From Candidatus Krumholzibacteriota bacterium (GTDB lineage Bacteria > Krumholzibacteriota > Krumholzibacteriia > LZORAL124-64-63): a stretch of 37,372 nucleotides of DNA. Location: positions 1 through 37,372 of the forward strand of contig JAJRZA010000044.1 of assembly GCA_024275485.1 (NCBI GenBank), in the 5' to 3' direction. The notes beneath the pieces were generated by a model, which was not told the DNA's origin, ran no database searches, and saw only the letters and a list, made by a program, of their open reading frames with translations. A program made the translations under genes and the position numbers. Position 1 is the first letter of the stretch, and every line of letters begins with the position of its first letter. Shown here piece by piece: positions 11,640 through 23,189 of the stretch.

Positions 11640-11706
11640 AAGCTCTTCTCCGGAAGATGACTAGGCCGGAAATCGAGTTGATTCCAAGGCTTCGGGGAGT
11701 TTGATG

Positions 11707-14673
11707 ATGATCCAGATGGGTTCCAATGGCAAGATCCTTCTTGCCCAGACCATTTTTGCATTGTTCCTGCTGATACTCGTTTCAGCACCCAGGGCGCATG
11801 CCATCCCCGAAAATGAACAGGCCTGGATTATCCTGGAACGGGGCGAAAGCAAAGGGGCACTATCCCTGGCTCAAAACCGCACTGACGCCCTTTCCCGCTG
11901 GCTGGTGGCGGTTATCGAGTTGGAAAATCAATCTTCACCAACCGACACGTCCCAGGTAAGCGAAGCTGCCCGAGCCTTCGAAAATGGTGATTTCGACCTG
12001 GTTGTACAAATTCTCCAACCCCTTCTCGACAATCCAGCCAATGAAGATGATAGGCTGCAAATTCGCCTGCGCCTGGGGGCTTCTCTGGTTGAATTGGGGC
12101 GTTTCGCCGAAGCTGAAGAAATGCTGACCATTGCCATCAACGATGCACAAACCCAGCGGCGAAAAGCCTCTGAATTCTTTGGTCTGCTGACCCGGGCGAG
12201 GGCCCGGGCGAGATTGCGTCAAATTGAACCGCCCCGCCAGGATTTGCAGGGGGCGCTGGGATTGGCCCGCAAAATGAACACCCATCGTTGGTCCGGGGTT
12301 GCGGCCATTGGCCTTTCGGTCATCAGTCGTCTGCAAATGGATTTGGACGATGCCCTGTTTTGGCGGGAAGCAGCCCTGGAACACTATCGTCACGCAGGGG
12401 ATCTCGGCGGTCAGGCCCAGGCCCTGCACTACATCGCGGCCATCGGCATCATGAAAGGCGAGCTGACCCGGGCCATGACCCAGTTGCAGGATGCCGATGC
12501 CCTGGCCCGAGAAGCCGATGACCAGGCCGAGTTGGGCGGCATTCTGGGAGAAATGGCGGCGATCAACTATCTGCTGGGTGATTTTGACAAGGCCCTGGAC
12601 CAATATCGTGAGGCGGTGCGTTTGGCTCCCAATCCATGGCGGCGGGGCATGATGCTGGTGAACGTCGGCTCCATTCACGAATACAGAGGGCAGTTTGATG
12701 AGGCCGTGCCGGTTCTGGAGGAAGCTCTTCAGTTGATGCGACAGGTTGGGGATCATCGCACCGAAACACAGGCCCTGCAGTCTTTGGGTGAAGCTCTGTG
12801 CGAGATGGGACAATCCGAGCGGGGATTGACCTATCTGGATGAGGCCATCGCCGCGGCCAGGGAATTTGAAATTCCCATGAGTGAGGCTTACGCCCTGGAA
12901 ATCAAGGGTCAGGCTTTGCTCCGCCAGGGTGATCTGGTGAGAGCTGCCGAATCTTTTGATGGGGCCACGACCCTGGCCAAGCAAATAGACTACTTCGATA
13001 TCCTTGAATGGTCGTTGCTGGGACAGGCCCAGGTTGCTCGTGCCGAAGGGAAACCAGAACAGGCCCTGCAGCATCTTCGCAACGCCCTGACCGAGGTGGC
13101 TGCTGTGCGCCGGCGCAGTGGCGGTTCGGATCGGGTGACCAGCGGCATCGTCAGCCAGGCGGGTCGGATTTATGAAGAAATGATCAACTTGCTGTATGAA
13201 ATGCACCAAGCCAATGCCGATTCCGGTTATGACCTTCAAGCCTATGAAGTGGCCCAGGAAGCCCGTGCTCGAGCTTTTCTCGACCTGATGACAGAAGCGC
13301 AGTACGATCTGCAAGTCAGTGCGGTGCCAGGTTTTCGCCAGCAGGAAAGCCAAATCCTGACCCGCATTGTTGATTTGGAAACCCGATTGACCGGAGCGGA
13401 CCCTGATTCCATGGGGCAACTGAAGGCCCAACTGGCCGGAGCTGAAGATGAACTTCAGTTGCTGGAGGCGCGCTTGCGGTCGGCGGATCCTCGTTATGCG
13501 GAAGTGCTGTATCCCGAGCCGCTGTCTTGCACCGAGGTATGCCGGGATGTTCTGCGACCAGGCGAAATAATGCTGGAATACGCCCTCGGTGAAGAGTCAT
13601 CCTATCTGTGGGTATTGAGTAGGGATAAGGTGAGCATGGTGGCCTTGCCTGGAAGAGCGCATGTGGAAAAGCAGGTTCGCCGAATGTTGCCCCTATTGCG
13701 GGACTACAATGTGACCGGGGCGGAAGCGGCCTGGTTCGTTGAACCCGCCCGTCAGGTGTACGAAATGCTGCTCGGGCCGGTAGCCCAGGAGATTGCCCTG
13801 GCTGAGCGTCTGATTATTGCCGCTGATGGAATTCTGCATTATCTGCCCTTTGAAGCTCTTTTATCCGCTGATACCAAGGCTCGGACTTTTGCAGAGTTGC
13901 CTTGGTTGGTCCGTGAGAAAGTGGTCACCTATACCCCTTCGGCAAGCATTCTGGGGAGCATCCGCCAAACCGACCGTCCGGCCCGGGTCCCGGGACCGTG
14001 GCTGTTGGTTGGCGATCCCTTGTTGATCCAAGGTGAAGACGCCGGATTGTTTGCCCGGGCCGCAGGGGCTGCCGGTTTGCCACCCTTGCCGTACGCGGCC
14101 CAGGAGTTGAAAGCCCTGGCAGCACTGGTGCCTGCGGGTTTGCCTCCGGCTGAGGTTTTGTCCGGTCCCCTGGCCACCCGCGGCAATTTGGCCGAGGCCG
14201 GTCGTGGCAAGGATCTCAGCCTGGTGCATTTTGCCAGTCATGGCTTGTTCAATGAATCCCGTCCACGCTATTCCGGTCTGGTGATCAGCCCGGATCCCAC
14301 CCGGGATGACGACGGTTTTCTGAGTATCTCCGAAGTGTTGGCCCTGGACCTGGATTGCGACCAGGTGGTACTTTCGGCCTGCGCATCGGCCCTGGGCCCG
14401 CATGTGACAGGTGAGGGCCTGGTGGGGTTGACGCGCAGTTTCATGTTTGCCGGGGCCCGCAGTGTTGTCTCTGCCTTGTGGGATGTTTCAGGCCGGGAAA
14501 CGTCTCGTTTCATGGAAAGCTACTACCGGGAGTTGGCCCTTGGCCCGGGAGATCGCGCCGAGTGTTTGGCCAAGGCCAAAAGAGCCATGCTGTCCAGGGG
14601 GGCCGCTGAAGGTCCCGACCCCGCGCACCCGACTTTCTGGGCCGCATTTGTGCTCAGTGGCACCGGACGTTGA
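11707..14673 (+). CDS. Secreted TPR-CHAT caspase-like protein
   Basis: A 988-residue protein. TTG 11701 and ATGs 11704, 11707 and 11716 are all in frame; 11707 has the best spacing (7 nt) to GGGGAG. It begins with a signal peptide or membrane anchor (about residues 9-32, ending RAHA). Residues about 70-450 are tandem tetratricopeptide repeats. A helical linker (about 490-600) includes a glutamate-rich coiled-coil stretch. The C-terminal CHAT domain (about 690-988) keeps the clan CD dyad: H845 in FASHG and C892 in LSACAS, with the typical GARSVVSALWDV strand near the end. It should be a protease of the caspase/separase fold acting outside the cytoplasm. Exported TPR-CHAT proteins differ from the cytoplasmic CRISPR-linked TPR-CHAT. 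Substrate unknown. Confidence 0.88.
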   Translation: MIQMGSNGKILLAQTIFALFLLILVSAPRAHAIPENEQAWIILERGESKGALSLAQNRTDALSRWLVAVIELENQSSPTDTSQVSEAARAFENGDFDLVVQILQPLLDNPANEDDRLQIRLRLGASLVELGRFAEAEEMLTIAINDAQTQRRKASEFFGLLTRARARARLRQIEPPRQDLQGALGLARKMNTHRWSGVAAIGLSVISRLQMDLDDALFWREAALEHYRHAGDLGGQAQALHYIAAIGIMKGELTRAMTQLQDADALAREADDQAELGGILGEMAAINYLLGDFDKALDQYREAVRLAPNPWRRGMMLVNVGSIHEYRGQFDEAVPVLEEALQLMRQVGDHRTETQALQSLGEALCEMGQSERGLTYLDEAIAAAREFEIPMSEAYALEIKGQALLRQGDLVRAAESFDGATTLAKQIDYFDILEWSLLGQAQVARAEGKPEQALQHLRNALTEVAAVRRRSGGSDRVTSGIVSQAGRIYEEMINLLYEMHQANADSGYDLQAYEVAQEARARAFLDLMTEAQYDLQVSAVPGFRQQESQILTRIVDLETRLTGADPDSMGQLKAQLAGAEDELQLLEARLRSADPRYAEVLYPEPLSCTEVCRDVLRPGEIMLEYALGEESSYLWVLSRDKVSMVALPGRAHVEKQVRRMLPLLRDYNVTGAEAAWFVEPARQVYEMLLGPVAQEIALAERLIIAADGILHYLPFEALLSADTKARTFAELPWLVREKVVTYTPSASILGSIRQTDRPARVPGPWLLVGDPLLIQGEDAGLFARAAGAAGLPPLPYAAQELKALAALVPAGLPPAEVLSGPLATRGNLAEAGRGKDLSLVHFASHGLFNESRPRYSGLVISPDPTRDDDGFLSISEVLALDLDCDQVVLSACASALGPHVTGEGLVGLTRSFMFAGARSVVSALWDVSGRETSRFMESYYRELALGPGDRAECLAKAKRAMLSRGAAEGPDPAHPTFWAAFVLSGTGR

Positions 14674-18878: not shown

Positions 18879-19789
18879 GTGACCGTCTGCAAAGAATTCA
18901 ACATCTTCACAAGGTCAGGCCCAGGCGCCCCATGGTGGCCTGGAGTGTCCGGGCAATGGCCTTGTTGCTGGCTGCCAGCTGGTGGCTTGGCGAATTCGAT
19001 CTGGCTGGGTGGCTGACGGAACGCCGATTGACAAATTTGCAGCGTTTCCTGGGCGAATTGCGTCCCTGGCCGGTGCAACAGAATGGATGGGATACCGCGA
19101 GCATAGTCCATTGGGCGAGGGGTCTTTGGGGCGATGGAGGCGGCGAAGCCATGGTCAGCACCCTTGCCATCAGCGTGGTGGCGATTGTTTTGGCGGGAGT
19201 CTTTGGTGCCCTTTTCAGTTTGCTTGCCGCCCGGAATTTATCATCGGCGGAACCCATGTTGCCGGGCGGGAAACCGCCTGGTTTGTCGACCATCCAGCTC
19301 TGGCGTGCCGTTGCATGGATGACCCGTACCTTCCTGGTCTTTATCCGTGCGGTACCCGAGTATGTCTGGGCTTTTCTTTTCCTGGCTCTGCTCGGTGCCA
19401 ACGCCTGGCCCATGGTCTTGGCCCTGGCCCTGCACAATACGGGAATCCTCGGCAAGCTGTCGGCGGAACTCATCGAAAATGTTGATCCCAAGAGCGCGGC
19501 CGCCCTGCGCGGTGCCGGTGCCAATCGTTTTCAAATTGTTTGGGCGAGTATTTTCCCACTCTCGCTGGCACGCTTTCTTCTGTATTTCTTTTACCGCTGG
19601 GAGACCTGTGTGCGTGAGGCCACGGTCCTAGGCATGTTGGGCATGGCCTCTTTGGGTTTGTTGATCGTGGATTCCAGGGCCCGAAATCGTTACGATGAGA
19701 TGATTTTCTTTATCCTGCTCGGGGCTTTGTTGGTTTTGCTGGGGGATCTGGTTTCGGCTCTTTCTCGGCGTTTTGTGCGGAAATCCTGA
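18875..19789 (+). CDS. ABC transporter permease 2, PhnE-like
   Basis: Second permease, 304 residues from TTG 18875, whose TTGA overlap with the preceding stop is a classic coupling. A GTG at 18842 is also in frame but lies well inside the upstream gene. It has about six membrane segments and the same coupling-loop pattern (ENVDPKSAAALRGAGA, FPLSLARFLLYFFYRWE), followed by REATVLGMLGMASLG. It is clearly paralogous to permease 1. It is the last gene of the importer operon; about 250 non-coding bases follow. Confidence 0.87.
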   Translation: MSDRLQRIQHLHKVRPRRPMVAWSVRAMALLLAASWWLGEFDLAGWLTERRLTNLQRFLGELRPWPVQQNGWDTASIVHWARGLWGDGGGEAMVSTLAISVVAIVLAGVFGALFSLLAARNLSSAEPMLPGGKPPGLSTIQLWRAVAWMTRTFLVFIRAVPEYVWAFLFLALLGANAWPMVLALALHNTGILGKLSAELIENVDPKSAAALRGAGANRFQIVWASIFPLSLARFLLYFFYRWETCVREATVLGMLGMASLGLLIVDSRARNRYDEMIFFILLGALLVLLGDLVSALSRRFVRKS

Positions 19790-20039
19790 CTTTCAATATC
19801 GGGGACATCTAGGGTCGTTTCGCAAATAATCTGGCTATAGCACGATAAATATTGGTGATATAGAAGGTTTTTGATCATGGGGTAGATTGTTGTTTGAAAT
19901 AATGCTATACTGCTTTTGTCTGATCTTGGACCGGCAATCAAATGCCGCCTTTCCGTTGGATTTTCTCTTTCCGGAATACACCAAAATGAGATGGCAATCG
20001 GTGTCCCTGGAGGATGCATTACTTTTCTGGAGGAAAAAA

Positions 20040-21449
20040 ATGAAACCCACTAAAAAACTAGGAATTTCCGTGGTGATGGTAATGCTGTTGTCATCCGCTT
20101 CAGTCATGGCCGCCCGAGTTGGTTTTGACGACGGCGTTGTCGGCACTGCGTTCGGTCAACCCATGGGCACTCCGGTGTTTTCACATATTCTCAGTGAAGA
20201 TGGTGTCGACGTTTTCATCACCTCGTTGGTTTCCAATGGGTCGTCCACCTATAATACCTGCAAGGTCGAACACTCTTTGGCGGCTCCGATCAATTTCAAC
20301 CATGGCAACAACAACATCATGGAACTGAACAACGTGGGCCTTCTTTTCAATTTTGATGGCGTCGGTGATTCCCGCTTCGAGTTTTATCATACGGGAGGAA
20401 CGGTGAACATTGAAGTCAACGGCCTTGGCGATGTCATTGCAGGCCCTGATTTCCCCAGCCTGGCCGGCCAGTTGGCCCCGGGGATAACCTTGTCCATCAC
20501 CGGGATGGAAGTGCCGGGTGGTTTCAAGGGCACCGGCACCATCACCGGGCCTGTGTCGAGCCTCCGCATCGGTGGAGCAGAGCTTTACCTTGACGATGTC
20601 TCTGGCGGCAGCGCTGCAGTGACGGATAATTGCAGCTTTCAGGTGAACCACGAATCCCTTACTGTGGGCCTTGCCTGGGGGTCGTCCTTCGGTGATGCAC
20701 CCGGCACCGTCATGTTCAATGAAGACACCATCCCCGTCTCCGCCGAAGAGTTCCATTTCTCAAACGACAGTACCACTTTTGGTGACTGCCTGGTGGGCAT
20801 CACACCCTTGATAGAATTCGGCACCGACAAGGTGATGAGGCTCCAGCATATCAGCAATCTATACGATATTCAGGCCCTTGGAATTTCCACGCTGGGGGTT
20901 TCGTTTGAATTCCTCAACGACGGCCGTTTGGAAAACCTGCAAGTGAACGATGGTCCCCTGCATATGGATCTTTTTGAAAACATGCCGACGGAAGTGGCGC
21001 CTGGAGTGACCATGGTTGTGGAAAGCTTCCTGGCTGGCACCGGCACCTATGGTCTGGTAACTTTGACGGGCAATATTGAAACCCTTTTGGTGGGTGGTAG
21101 GCTGTTCTTCCTGGACAACATCTGTGTCACCGAAGGGACCCTGAGTGCCGCTGGCGACCAGATGGCTACTGTCGGGTTGATGGTGCAACGGAATTATCCC
21201 AACCCGTTCAACCCCAGCACCACTGTTGTTTTCCGCACCAAACGGAGCGAGACGGTGGAACTTTCGGTGGTGGACTTGGCTGGACGGCGGGTGGCCACTT
21301 TATTTACCGGCATTGTTCAGGCCGGCGAGCATGAAGTCTTTTGGGATGGTCGCAATACTAAAGGACAACAGGCGGCCACGGGAGTTTATTTTGTGCAACT
21401 GCGTAGTGGGCAGGGTGTGGTGAGTCGAAAAATTACCATGGTAAAATAG
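20040..21449 (+). CDS. Secreted two-repeat protein with FlgD-like C-terminal module
   Basis: Exported protein of 469 residues from ATG 20040, which follows TGGAGG with good spacing and opens a signal peptide (MKPTKKLGIS..., cleavage near VMA|ARV). The mature part holds two tandem domains of about 150-170 residues that look duplicated. Both contain a GNNNIMEL/GTDKVMRL-type strand, a LAPGITLSI/VAPGVTMVV strand, a GTGTI/GTYGLVTL turn and end in LYLDD/FFLDN. The C-terminus (about 380-469) is the FlgD-like module with NYPNPFNPST, VVDLAGRRV and GVYFVQL, like that of the 4807-7716 protein. It is probably surface-associated. I do not recognise the repeat domain. Confidence 0.82.
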   Translation: MKPTKKLGISVVMVMLLSSASVMAARVGFDDGVVGTAFGQPMGTPVFSHILSEDGVDVFITSLVSNGSSTYNTCKVEHSLAAPINFNHGNNNIMELNNVGLLFNFDGVGDSRFEFYHTGGTVNIEVNGLGDVIAGPDFPSLAGQLAPGITLSITGMEVPGGFKGTGTITGPVSSLRIGGAELYLDDVSGGSAAVTDNCSFQVNHESLTVGLAWGSSFGDAPGTVMFNEDTIPVSAEEFHFSNDSTTFGDCLVGITPLIEFGTDKVMRLQHISNLYDIQALGISTLGVSFEFLNDGRLENLQVNDGPLHMDLFENMPTEVAPGVTMVVESFLAGTGTYGLVTLTGNIETLLVGGRLFFLDNICVTEGTLSAAGDQMATVGLMVQRNYPNPFNPSTTVVFRTKRSETVELSVVDLAGRRVATLFTGIVQAGEHEVFWDGRNTKGQQAATGVYFVQLRSGQGVVSRKITMVK

Positions 21450-21476
21450 AGGTTGAAAATACAGCGGTTCAGGGAC

Positions 21477-21498
21477 GGCCCGGGCCAAAGCCCGGGCC
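21477..21498. terminator. Strong GC hairpin between convergent genes
   Basis: GGCCCGGGC (21477-21485) and GCCCGGGCC (21490-21498) form a perfect 9-bp stem with a CAAA loop. It lies 27 nt after the FlgD-tailed gene and before the end of the convergent caspase-like gene. No T-run follows on either strand, so it may work with Rho or as a bidirectional transcript stabiliser. Confidence 0.55.
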
Positions 21499-21523
21499 GC
21501 CTGTGGGTTAGCGCTCAGGATAA

Positions 21524-22237
21524 CTAGGTTCTTGCGGTTTCCTTCTCGGCAGTCTCTTCCAGGGTTTTCCCTTCCATCTCCTGCACAACTTTCTCCGGCC
21601 TTTCTGCCAACTCGATCTGCTCCATCTGCTCGAGATGTTCCCATAGCCAGCTGAAATTGGCGCCGACTTCAACCAGGTCGAAGGTTGCGGTGGTGGTCCG
21701 TTGTGGGTGGTTGGCCATGAGGTGTTTTCGTCCCCCGTCCTCGGCACACACGTATTGCCCTTTCTTGGCCCGCAGGGCAACTTTGTTGTCACCAAGCTCG
21801 GTCAGTACGAAGGTCTCCCAACTGCGCAGCCAACTGCGGTCGGCAACCAGCTTGCGGCCACCGCCCTTCTCAGCGCAAACGAACCTATTGTTCACGGCCC
21901 GCAAAGCGATTGAGCGGCCGAGGGTTAGGATACCCTGGTCGCCTGATATCCCGTGCGCGCCGGCGGTGGGATAGTGTGATTGCTCACATGACCTGAGGGA
22001 TGGCCCCATGCGCTTATGACGCACCAGGGCCTTGTCCCAGAAGCATTTGCAGACTTCCTCGGAAGAACCGATGCCCAGATTGATGTTGCCACCGATATAG
22101 GTCCGTGCACCAGCACCCAAAATGGCGGTTTCCAACGGCTGATTGTGGACCTTGCAGGAGTTGAAGTAGAGCACGGCCGGTGCCAGGGGATGGTTTTGCA
22201 GACCCTGGAACCAGCTGGCGGAAAGGTTTCCATCGTT
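21524..22237 (-). CDS. Caspase-like/fascin-like protein, C-terminal part after the frame break
   Basis: This frame continues the upstream half after a +1 shift at 22235-22241. In the joined 426-residue protein it covers residues 190-426. It begins NDGNLSASWFQGL and carries the second catalytic residue of a clan CD (caspase-fold) protease, C217 in YFNSC. Residues about 290-380 form two repeats of a fascin-like beta-trefoil (NRFVCAEKGGGRKLVADR and QYVCAEDGGRKHLMAN), a carbohydrate- or protein-binding fold. An acidic helical tail (about 385-426) follows. Read alone it has no good start, so translation probably depends on the upstream half. The gene is either recoded, a recent pseudogene or a one-base sequence error. 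Confidence 0.72.
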   Translation of the reverse strand, partial: NDGNLSASWFQGLQNHPLAPAVLYFNSCKVHNQPLETAILGAGARTYIGGNINLGIGSSEEVCKCFWDKALVRHKRMGPSLRSCEQSHYPTAGAHGISGDQGILTLGRSIALRAVNNRFVCAEKGGGRKLVADRSWLRSWETFVLTELGDNKVALRAKKGQYVCAEDGGRKHLMANHPQRTTTATFDLVEVGANFSWLWEHLEQMEQIELAERPEKVVQEMEGKTLEETAEKETART

Positions 22238-22241
22238 AAAG
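22235..22241 (-). other. Candidate +1 frameshift site CTT-TAA-C
   Basis: On the minus strand the upstream frame reads CTT then the stop TAA followed by C. Slipping one base forward (CTT to TTT, next codon AAC) restores a perfect continuation SL-NDG in the caspase domain. The heptamer matches the shifty-stop class of the prfB +1 site (CTT-TGA-C). The Shine-Dalgarno-like stimulator found upstream in prfB is not visible here. One extra T in the TTT run gives the same picture. Confidence 0.4.
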
Positions 22242-22805
22242 TGAAATACTGTTGGGATTGCCGTGACCAATGTTGACGAAGCCCTTGAGGCCGGAGGTGA
22301 GGTAGCGGCGGTAGTTGGTCAAGGTGGCTTGGGCCCCAATCAGCTTCTTGGTGTTCAGGCCCATCTCCCGAGCCATTGCATCGATGTGATTGACTGCGTT
22401 GACGGTCGAGGTAATGTCGTCGCAGGGAGTGGCCACCACCATGTCGTAGGCGTAGGTGGCCGTATCCTCACTCTCCCATTCGTAGGTGTCTTCCTCGTTG
22501 AATTCCTGAGAGTCATCGTAGTCCTCCTTGATGTCCGTCACTTTGAAATCCTGGTCAACGTCGATGCGTCGCACTTCCGATGTGTAGGTGTCCTTGCGCA
22601 GCAGATAGGCAAGGAGGTAGTCCGCGGTACCATCTGGTTTGCGCTTGACCTTGACGTTGACCTGCCGGTACTGCGCCGTGGTTCCCGGCAGGACCTGCTG
22701 CCGAATGGTGTCGGTCACGGCCTGTTCGTCTTGGTCATCGTAGACTTTGTTCTGAGTTCCTGAGCCGAAGATTTTGATGGGAATTTTTTCGAAGCGATCA
22801 GACAT
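22236..22805 (-). CDS. Caspase-like/fascin-like protein, N-terminal part up to the frame break
   Basis: It starts at ATG 22805 behind AGGAGGG (6-nt spacing) and encodes 189 residues before TAA. No signal peptide is visible, so it is probably cytoplasmic. Residues about 1-115 are charged and acidic (EDYDDSQEFNEEDTYEWESED). Residues about 118-189 begin a caspase-fold domain, with a DMVVATPCDD strand, a helix (NAVNHIDAMAREMG) and the catalytic-histidine motif FVNIGHGNPNS with H181. The matching cysteine lies in the next frame (21524-22237). The start and the intact codon pattern up to the break suggest the gene is still, or was very recently, functional. Confidence 0.72.
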   Translation of the reverse strand: MSDRFEKIPIKIFGSGTQNKVYDDQDEQAVTDTIRQQVLPGTTAQYRQVNVKVKRKPDGTADYLLAYLLRKDTYTSEVRRIDVDQDFKVTDIKEDYDDSQEFNEEDTYEWESEDTATYAYDMVVATPCDDITSTVNAVNHIDAMAREMGLNTKKLIGAQATLTNYRRYLTSGLKGFVNIGHGNPNSISL

Positions 22806-22873
22806 GGCAATCCCTCCTGGTCTGGGTATGGATCCCTAAGGCACCAAAAGTGCCTCTCCCTCTATGGTTAAAG

Positions 22874-22980
22874 GGCACTACCGATACCCTTGTCTCCGCC
22901 ACGGAGGAAAGGGGGCAAGGCGTCTCTACGGAGACGCGAAAAAACGGCTTTGGTATCACCAAGCCGTCGGCGTCCGTGCC
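22874..22980 (+). ncRNA. Candidate structured RNA (four-helix junction), family unknown
   Basis: GGCAC (22874-22878) plus CCGA (22881-22884) pair with TCGG (22967-22970) plus GTGCC (22976-22980) to close three helices. Helix A is CCTTG/CAAGG (22888-22892/22916-22920) with inner CTCCG/CGGAG. Helix B is GCGTCTC/GAGACGC (22920-22926/22931-22937) with a UACG loop closed by C-G, the extra-stable UNCG class only when read on the plus strand. Helix C is CGGCTT-GGT/ACC-AAGCCG (22945-22966). It matches no riboswitch or housekeeping RNA consensus I can recall. Confidence 0.35.
22939..22966 (-). terminator. Terminator-like hairpin upstream of the caspase-like gene
   Basis: On the minus strand a hairpin CGGCTTGGT...ACC(A)AAGCCG (22966-22945) is followed directly by TTTTTT (22944-22939). 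It lies about 135 nt before the caspase-like start, so it could attenuate a transcript begun farther upstream. It overlaps helix C of the plus-strand fold, so the two interpretations compete. Confidence 0.45.
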
Positions 22981-23104
22981 ACTGAAATATGGAAGGTGTA
23001 TGGGAATTGAGTCAGCCCGTGGACAAGTTAATTGCAAAATTTGATGGCGCAAGCCACCTGCTGGCGTCGACCAAAATTTGGCGAAACCAAGTAGAAGCAG
23101 GGGA

Positions 23105-23133
23105 TTGACCAATAGCCCAAAATCCGCTATTCT
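23105..23133 (+). promoter_or_regulatory. Sigma-70-like promoter of the POT gene
   Basis: TTGACC (23105-23110) and TATTCT (23128-23133) are separated by exactly 17 nt. Transcription would start near 23140, giving a leader of about 75 nt that contains the terminator at 23153-23189. Confidence 0.6.
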
Positions 23134-23152
23134 GATCGTCAGAGACAGCCCA

Positions 23153-23189
23153 CCTGGGCCCCTGGATCTGCGGGGGCCGGGTTTTTTTT
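23153..23189 (+). terminator. Intrinsic terminator in the POT leader (possible attenuator)
   Basis: GGCCCC (23157-23162) pairs with GGGGCC (23173-23178), with CC/GG pairs beyond a small bulge, followed by eight T residues (23182-23189). It lies downstream of a good promoter and 26 nt before the POT start, and no plus-strand gene upstream needs terminating. Confidence 0.65.

What the first reader, a model, noticed from the sequence alone, without database searches (positions are those of the whole stretch)
21524..22805. Caspase-like/fascin-like gene broken exactly at a CTT-TAA-C shifty stop
The upstream frame ends in CTT-TAA-C. A +1 slip there joins two frames into a 426-residue protein with a complete clan CD dyad (H181, C217) and a fascin-like beta-trefoil, with no residue lost or gained at the junction. 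The heptamer is the class used for the prfB +1 frameshift, though no upstream Shine-Dalgarno-like stimulator is visible. Bacterial caspase-fold proteases fused to a fascin-like domain are uncommon, and programmed frameshifting would be a new way to control one. A single extra T in the TTT run is the plain alternative.
Basis: partly seen in the sequence, partly recalled or inferred. Interest (0 to 1): 0.75.

Follow-up and report, generated by a model that had tools for sequence, protein, structure and literature searches.

The report
Frame-broken clan CD protease gene
A bacterial gene for a caspase-fold protein is split by a single extra base just before a stop codon; every relative found is unbroken, so this is most likely an ordinary mutation or assembly slip and not a new genetic switch, though the break does fall on a sequence at which ribosomes can slip.

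Summary
On the minus strand, 22805-22236 ends in CTT-TAA-C, and a +1 step there joins a second frame (22237-21524) into 426 residues. Homologues from four other lineages (44-56% identical) align without a gap across the junction, and all read through it in one frame. H181 and C217 are invariant, and the AlphaFold model matches clan CD enzymes (CHAT, gingipain, separase). So the joined protein is the family's real full-length product and the break lies within the TTTAA stretch.

The programmed-frameshift reading is not supported. No relative carries the heptamer or a break. There is no Shine-Dalgarno-like stimulator, whereas the same genome's prfB has a canonical one (AGGAGG, then CTT-TGA-C). 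No upstream structure stands out. The gene is a singleton in its phylum, on a 3.4-kb stretch that a same-genus genome lacks. The heptamer remains the one real oddity: a random one-base insertion makes CTT-TRA-C at the break only about 2-4 times in 10,000. Published counts imply tens of thousands of frame-broken singleton genes, so a few such coincidences are expected.

Best reading: a recent one-base insertion (real or assembly-made) in an accessory clan CD protease gene, perhaps with leaky full-length product. Reads over 22230-22245 would decide.

The parts
22812..22818 (-). Shine-Dalgarno sequence AGGAGGG, 6 nt before the start codon
   Evidence: sequence
22236..22805 (-). upstream frame (ORF A), 189 aa, N-terminal domain plus the first half of the clan CD domain up to and beyond His181
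22235..22241 (-). CTT-TAA-C heptamer at the break; the extra base lies in its TTTAA part
21524..22237 (-). downstream frame (residues 190-426 and the stop): second half of the clan CD domain with Cys217, DUF7910/fascin-like repeats and a charged tail
22521..22805 (-). N-terminal alpha/beta domain, residues 1-95, shared by all close relatives
21926..22445 (-). caspase-fold (clan CD) domain, residues 121-293, interrupted by the break
22263..22265 (-). His181 codon, invariant
22154..22156 (-). Cys217 codon, invariant, downstream of the break
21668..21910 (-). DUF7910 / fascin-like repeats, residues 299-379
19759..23172 (.). stretch absent from same-genus genome G001 (about 140 bp there instead): accessory islet holding this gene and a gene for a protein with a Por/FlgD-type tail

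Best explanation
This is an accessory, sparsely distributed gene for a stand-alone caspase-fold (clan CD) cysteine protease with a C-terminal fascin-like module. In this assembly it carries one extra base in the TTTAA stretch at 22236-22240. Ribosomes that read the normal frame stop after 189 residues, having made the part with His181 but not Cys217, so no active protease results. The insertion is recent (or a consensus or assembly slip), because the downstream frame is as well preserved as the upstream one. Because of where the base landed it happens to create CTT-TAA-C, at which a small share of ribosomes might slip +1 and make some full-length protein; that would be accidental leakage, not a selected switch. 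Shown: the break, its position, homology on both sides, unbroken relatives, lack of a stimulator. Inferred: loss of activity, recency, low leakage. Real mutation and assembly error cannot be told apart here.
For: All four close relatives, from separate lineages, read through this point in one frame with codons CTT CAT, CTC GCC, CTC GCT and CTC GCG, none with a heptamer or stop. No SD-like sequence lies upstream, while this genome's prfB (L008) has AGGAGG, a short spacer, CTT-TGA-C. Upstream RNA structure is unremarkable (z 0.13); downstream is only mildly stable (z -2.36; 6 of 200 shuffles as stable). The gene is absent from the other 79 searched genomes of the phylum, including all five same-genus genomes, and G001 has the empty site: no sign of a long-conserved regulated locus. 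Identity to L004 is 56% upstream and 54% downstream of the break, so the downstream part has not decayed. Published survey: unclustered, homology-validated frame-broken genes are expected to be sequencing errors or indels (PMC3711429).
Against: A one-base insertion gives CTT-TRA-C at the break with probability about 1.9e-4 (any inserted base) to 4.2e-4 (duplications), so the coincidence is uncomfortable. The assembly is not visibly error-prone: 0 frame breaks in 119 ORFs (43.7 kilo-residues) shared with a same-genus genome, where a control found 34 of 40 planted insertions. The TTT run is short, so it is not a classic error hotspot.
Confidence: 0.85

Rival explanations
1. Programmed +1 ribosomal frameshifting: tRNA-Leu slips from CUU to UUU at the slow UAA-C stop, joining His181 and Cys217 into one active protease only when termination is weak.
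For: Exact CTT-TRA-C heptamer at the break, rare by chance; 1.4% of prfB sites use CTTTAA (PMC12421855); the genome retains prfB frameshifting; the downstream frame is intact and the stop falls between the two catalytic residues.
Against: No SD-like stimulator; not conserved in any relative; TAA is read by both RF1 and RF2 and is poorly represented even in prfB; no clear RNA structure; a single species.
Confidence: 0.1
2. Two separate proteins: the downstream frame starts on its own by re-initiation and the halves assemble into a split protease.
For: The frames overlap by about 35 nt and a TTG (22270) opens the downstream frame.
Against: No SD before the TTG; the ATG just after the stop (22233) is in the third frame, not the downstream one; the cut would fall inside the conserved GHG...L.DG segment; no relative is split.
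Confidence: 0.03
3. Phase variation: the T run gains and loses a base in the population to switch the gene.
For: A one-base change in the run restores or breaks the frame.
Against: Three T's is far shorter than known phase-variable tracts (own knowledge); no tandem repeat is visible at the site.
Confidence: 0.02

Closest known systems
prfB (RF2) programmed +1 frameshift
   Same: CTT-TRA-C heptamer in phase, +1 direction, stop followed by C
   Different: no SD-like element just upstream, TAA in place of TGA, not conserved, no link to RF2 autoregulation
Clan CD cysteine peptidases (CHAT, gingipain/C25, separase, caspase/C14)
   Same: predicted beta/alpha fold with His in a GHG turn and Cys after the next strand; Foldseek E 5e-6 to SAVED-CHAT 8tl0, about 1e-4 to separase and gingipain
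   Different: no Pfam or NCBIfam peptidase model matches, so it belongs to no named family tested
DUF7910 / fascin-like repeats (PF25490, PF06268)
   Same: about 80 aa with repeats of the form .FVCAE.GG...L.A
   Different: only about two repeats; below the Fascin cut-off; relatives carry other C-terminal modules (DUF6623 in L007)
Singleton frame-broken genes (Antonov et al. 2013, PMC3711429)
   Same: one species, homology-validated break, unbroken relatives
   Different: break lies on a slip-prone heptamer

Membership tests
prfB-type programmed +1 frameshift | in-phase CTT-TRA-C | tested here: met
prfB-type programmed +1 frameshift | SD-like AGGGGG about 3 nt upstream of CTT | tested here: not met
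   upstream is AATCCCAACAGTATTTCA; own prfB has AGGAGG
prfB-type programmed +1 frameshift | site conserved among homologues | tested here: not met
   four relatives unbroken
prfB-type programmed +1 frameshift | measured full-length trans-frame product | not testable with these tools
   needs a reporter or proteomics
Clan CD peptidase | His (GHG) and Cys dyad after successive strands | tested here: met
   H181 and C217 invariant; strands E175-178 and E211-214 precede them
Clan CD peptidase | fold match to solved members | tested here: met
   TM about 0.45 normalised by the query, a moderate-confidence model (pLDDT 72.7)
Peptidase C14 (caspase/orthocaspase) proper | match to a C14 profile | tested here: not met
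   no Pfam peptidase hit
Fascin domain | score above the Pfam cut-off | tested here: not met
   14.7 v 23.1 bits; DUF7910 passes with 50.1 v 35

The most novel reading that the evidence does not exclude
A selected, SD-independent +1 frameshift at CTT-TAA-C that makes an active bacterial clan CD protease only when termination is slow, for example under release-factor shortage.
Probability: 0.06. Interest if true: 0.8.

Novelty: new member of a known kind. Interest (0 to 1): 0.25.

Why it matters
If programmed, it would be, as far as I know, the first frameshift-gated caspase-fold protease and a rare cellular use of the RF2 slip site outside prfB. As it stands, it is a caution that a textbook slip heptamer can arise from a single-base insertion, and it points to a small, unnamed clan CD family with a shared N-terminal domain and exchangeable C-terminal modules, found in scattered bacterial and archaeal MAGs.

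Tried and rejected
Close relatives at the same locus: none in five same-genus genomes or the rest of the phylum searched. Viral contigs: none. Plasmids: only the fascin-like part hits. PDB by sequence: none. PADLOC: no defence family. Own prfB frameshift as a positive control: present and canonical. General assembly error rate: no breaks in 119 shared ORFs, so a very error-prone assembly is rejected. RNA structure as stimulator: weak. Searching around the L004 and L007 genomes failed because the tool needs G handles. The apparent break in L006 is a run of N, not a mutation.

Full report
Observation. The gene lies on the minus strand, 22805-21524. The first frame has an ATG with AGGAGGG 6 nt before it and ends after 189 codons in ATT TCA CTT TAA C. 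A +1 step at the stop gives 426 residues without another stop.

Is it one gene? Yes. A scan of GTDB genomes found four relatives, labelled Zixiibacteriota (L004), Methanomicrobiales (L005), Verrucomicrobia (L006) and Anaerolineae (L007). tblastn with the joined protein aligns through the junction with no gap in all four, and each is a single frame there (L006 has a run of N further upstream). Testing each base in turn as the extra one, the peptide fits the relatives best for a break in TTT-AA. The relatives' codons there are CTT CAT GAC, CTC GCC GAC, CTC GCT GAC and CTC GCG GAT: no heptamer and no stop.

What the protein is. Residues 121-293 are predicted to form a caspase-like fold (mean pLDDT 72.7 for residues 1-293), and Foldseek ranks SAVED-CHAT, separase and gingipain first (same picture for the full-length model). 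H181 and C217 are invariant in five sequences. No Pfam, NCBIfam or PDB sequence match covers this domain. The C-terminus has about 80 aa of DUF7910/fascin-like repeats; L004 has more repeats and L007 has DUF6623 in their place. The relatives' shared N-terminal domain, shared catalytic domain and differing C-terminal modules suggest a small, unnamed family.

Context. The gene is missing from all other genomes of the phylum that could be searched. In same-genus G001 the ABC permease and the POT-type transporter that flank the region lie about 140 bp apart, so 19,759-23,172 is an accessory stretch. It also holds a gene for a protein with a Por/FlgD-type C-terminal tail.

Programmed or not. For: the heptamer. 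A random inserted base gives CTT-TRA-C at the break in 1.9e-4 of trials, a duplicated base in 4.2e-4. Against: no SD-like stimulator, although the organism's own prfB has the canonical one and that element is described as hyper-conserved in prfB sites (PMC12421855); TAA in place of TGA (1.4% of prfB sites); no conservation; no marked upstream structure, with the downstream stretch only mildly stable. A survey of 1106 genomes had 104,260 singleton frame-broken genes, about 30% homology-validated and mostly judged errors or indels, against 146 recoding clusters (PMC3711429). About 31,000 validated singletons times 2-4 in 10,000 gives roughly 6-13 chance heptamers of this kind, so one met in a large scan is not remarkable. 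This estimate is mine and assumes similar base composition.

Mutation or error. In 119 ORFs shared with G003 no break was seen in this genome, with 85% detection in a control; the assembly is therefore fairly clean, which leans towards a real, recent base change. Without reads this stays open. The equal identity on both sides of the break (56% and 54% to L004) says the downstream part has not decayed.

Mechanism in short. Most ribosomes stop at codon 190, giving a fragment with the His but no Cys. Slippage at CUU-UAA-C without an SD is expected to be low (own knowledge, not measured here). The gene is therefore probably off, or nearly so, in the assembled population.

Noticed in passing
window 11701-14673: A second clan CD-type protein in the window: TPR repeats followed by a CHAT domain (Pfam 2.1e-63).
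   Followed up: no
L008 2512-2526 (G000 C50), minus strand: Canonical prfB +1 frameshift site (AGGAGG, short spacer, CTT-TGA-C) in this genome.
   Followed up: yes
L004, L005, L006, L007: Unnamed clan CD family with a conserved N-terminal domain and exchangeable C-terminal modules (fascin-like repeats, DUF6623; L006 looks beta/gamma-crystallin-like by eye).
   Followed up: partly
window 19759-23172: Two-gene accessory stretch absent from same-genus G001; in G005 the POT-type transporter gene follows the CysS gene directly, so the whole spot varies.
   Followed up: partly
window 22900-22975: G+C-rich inverted repeats next to A/T runs upstream of the protease gene, possibly terminators (by eye).
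   Followed up: no
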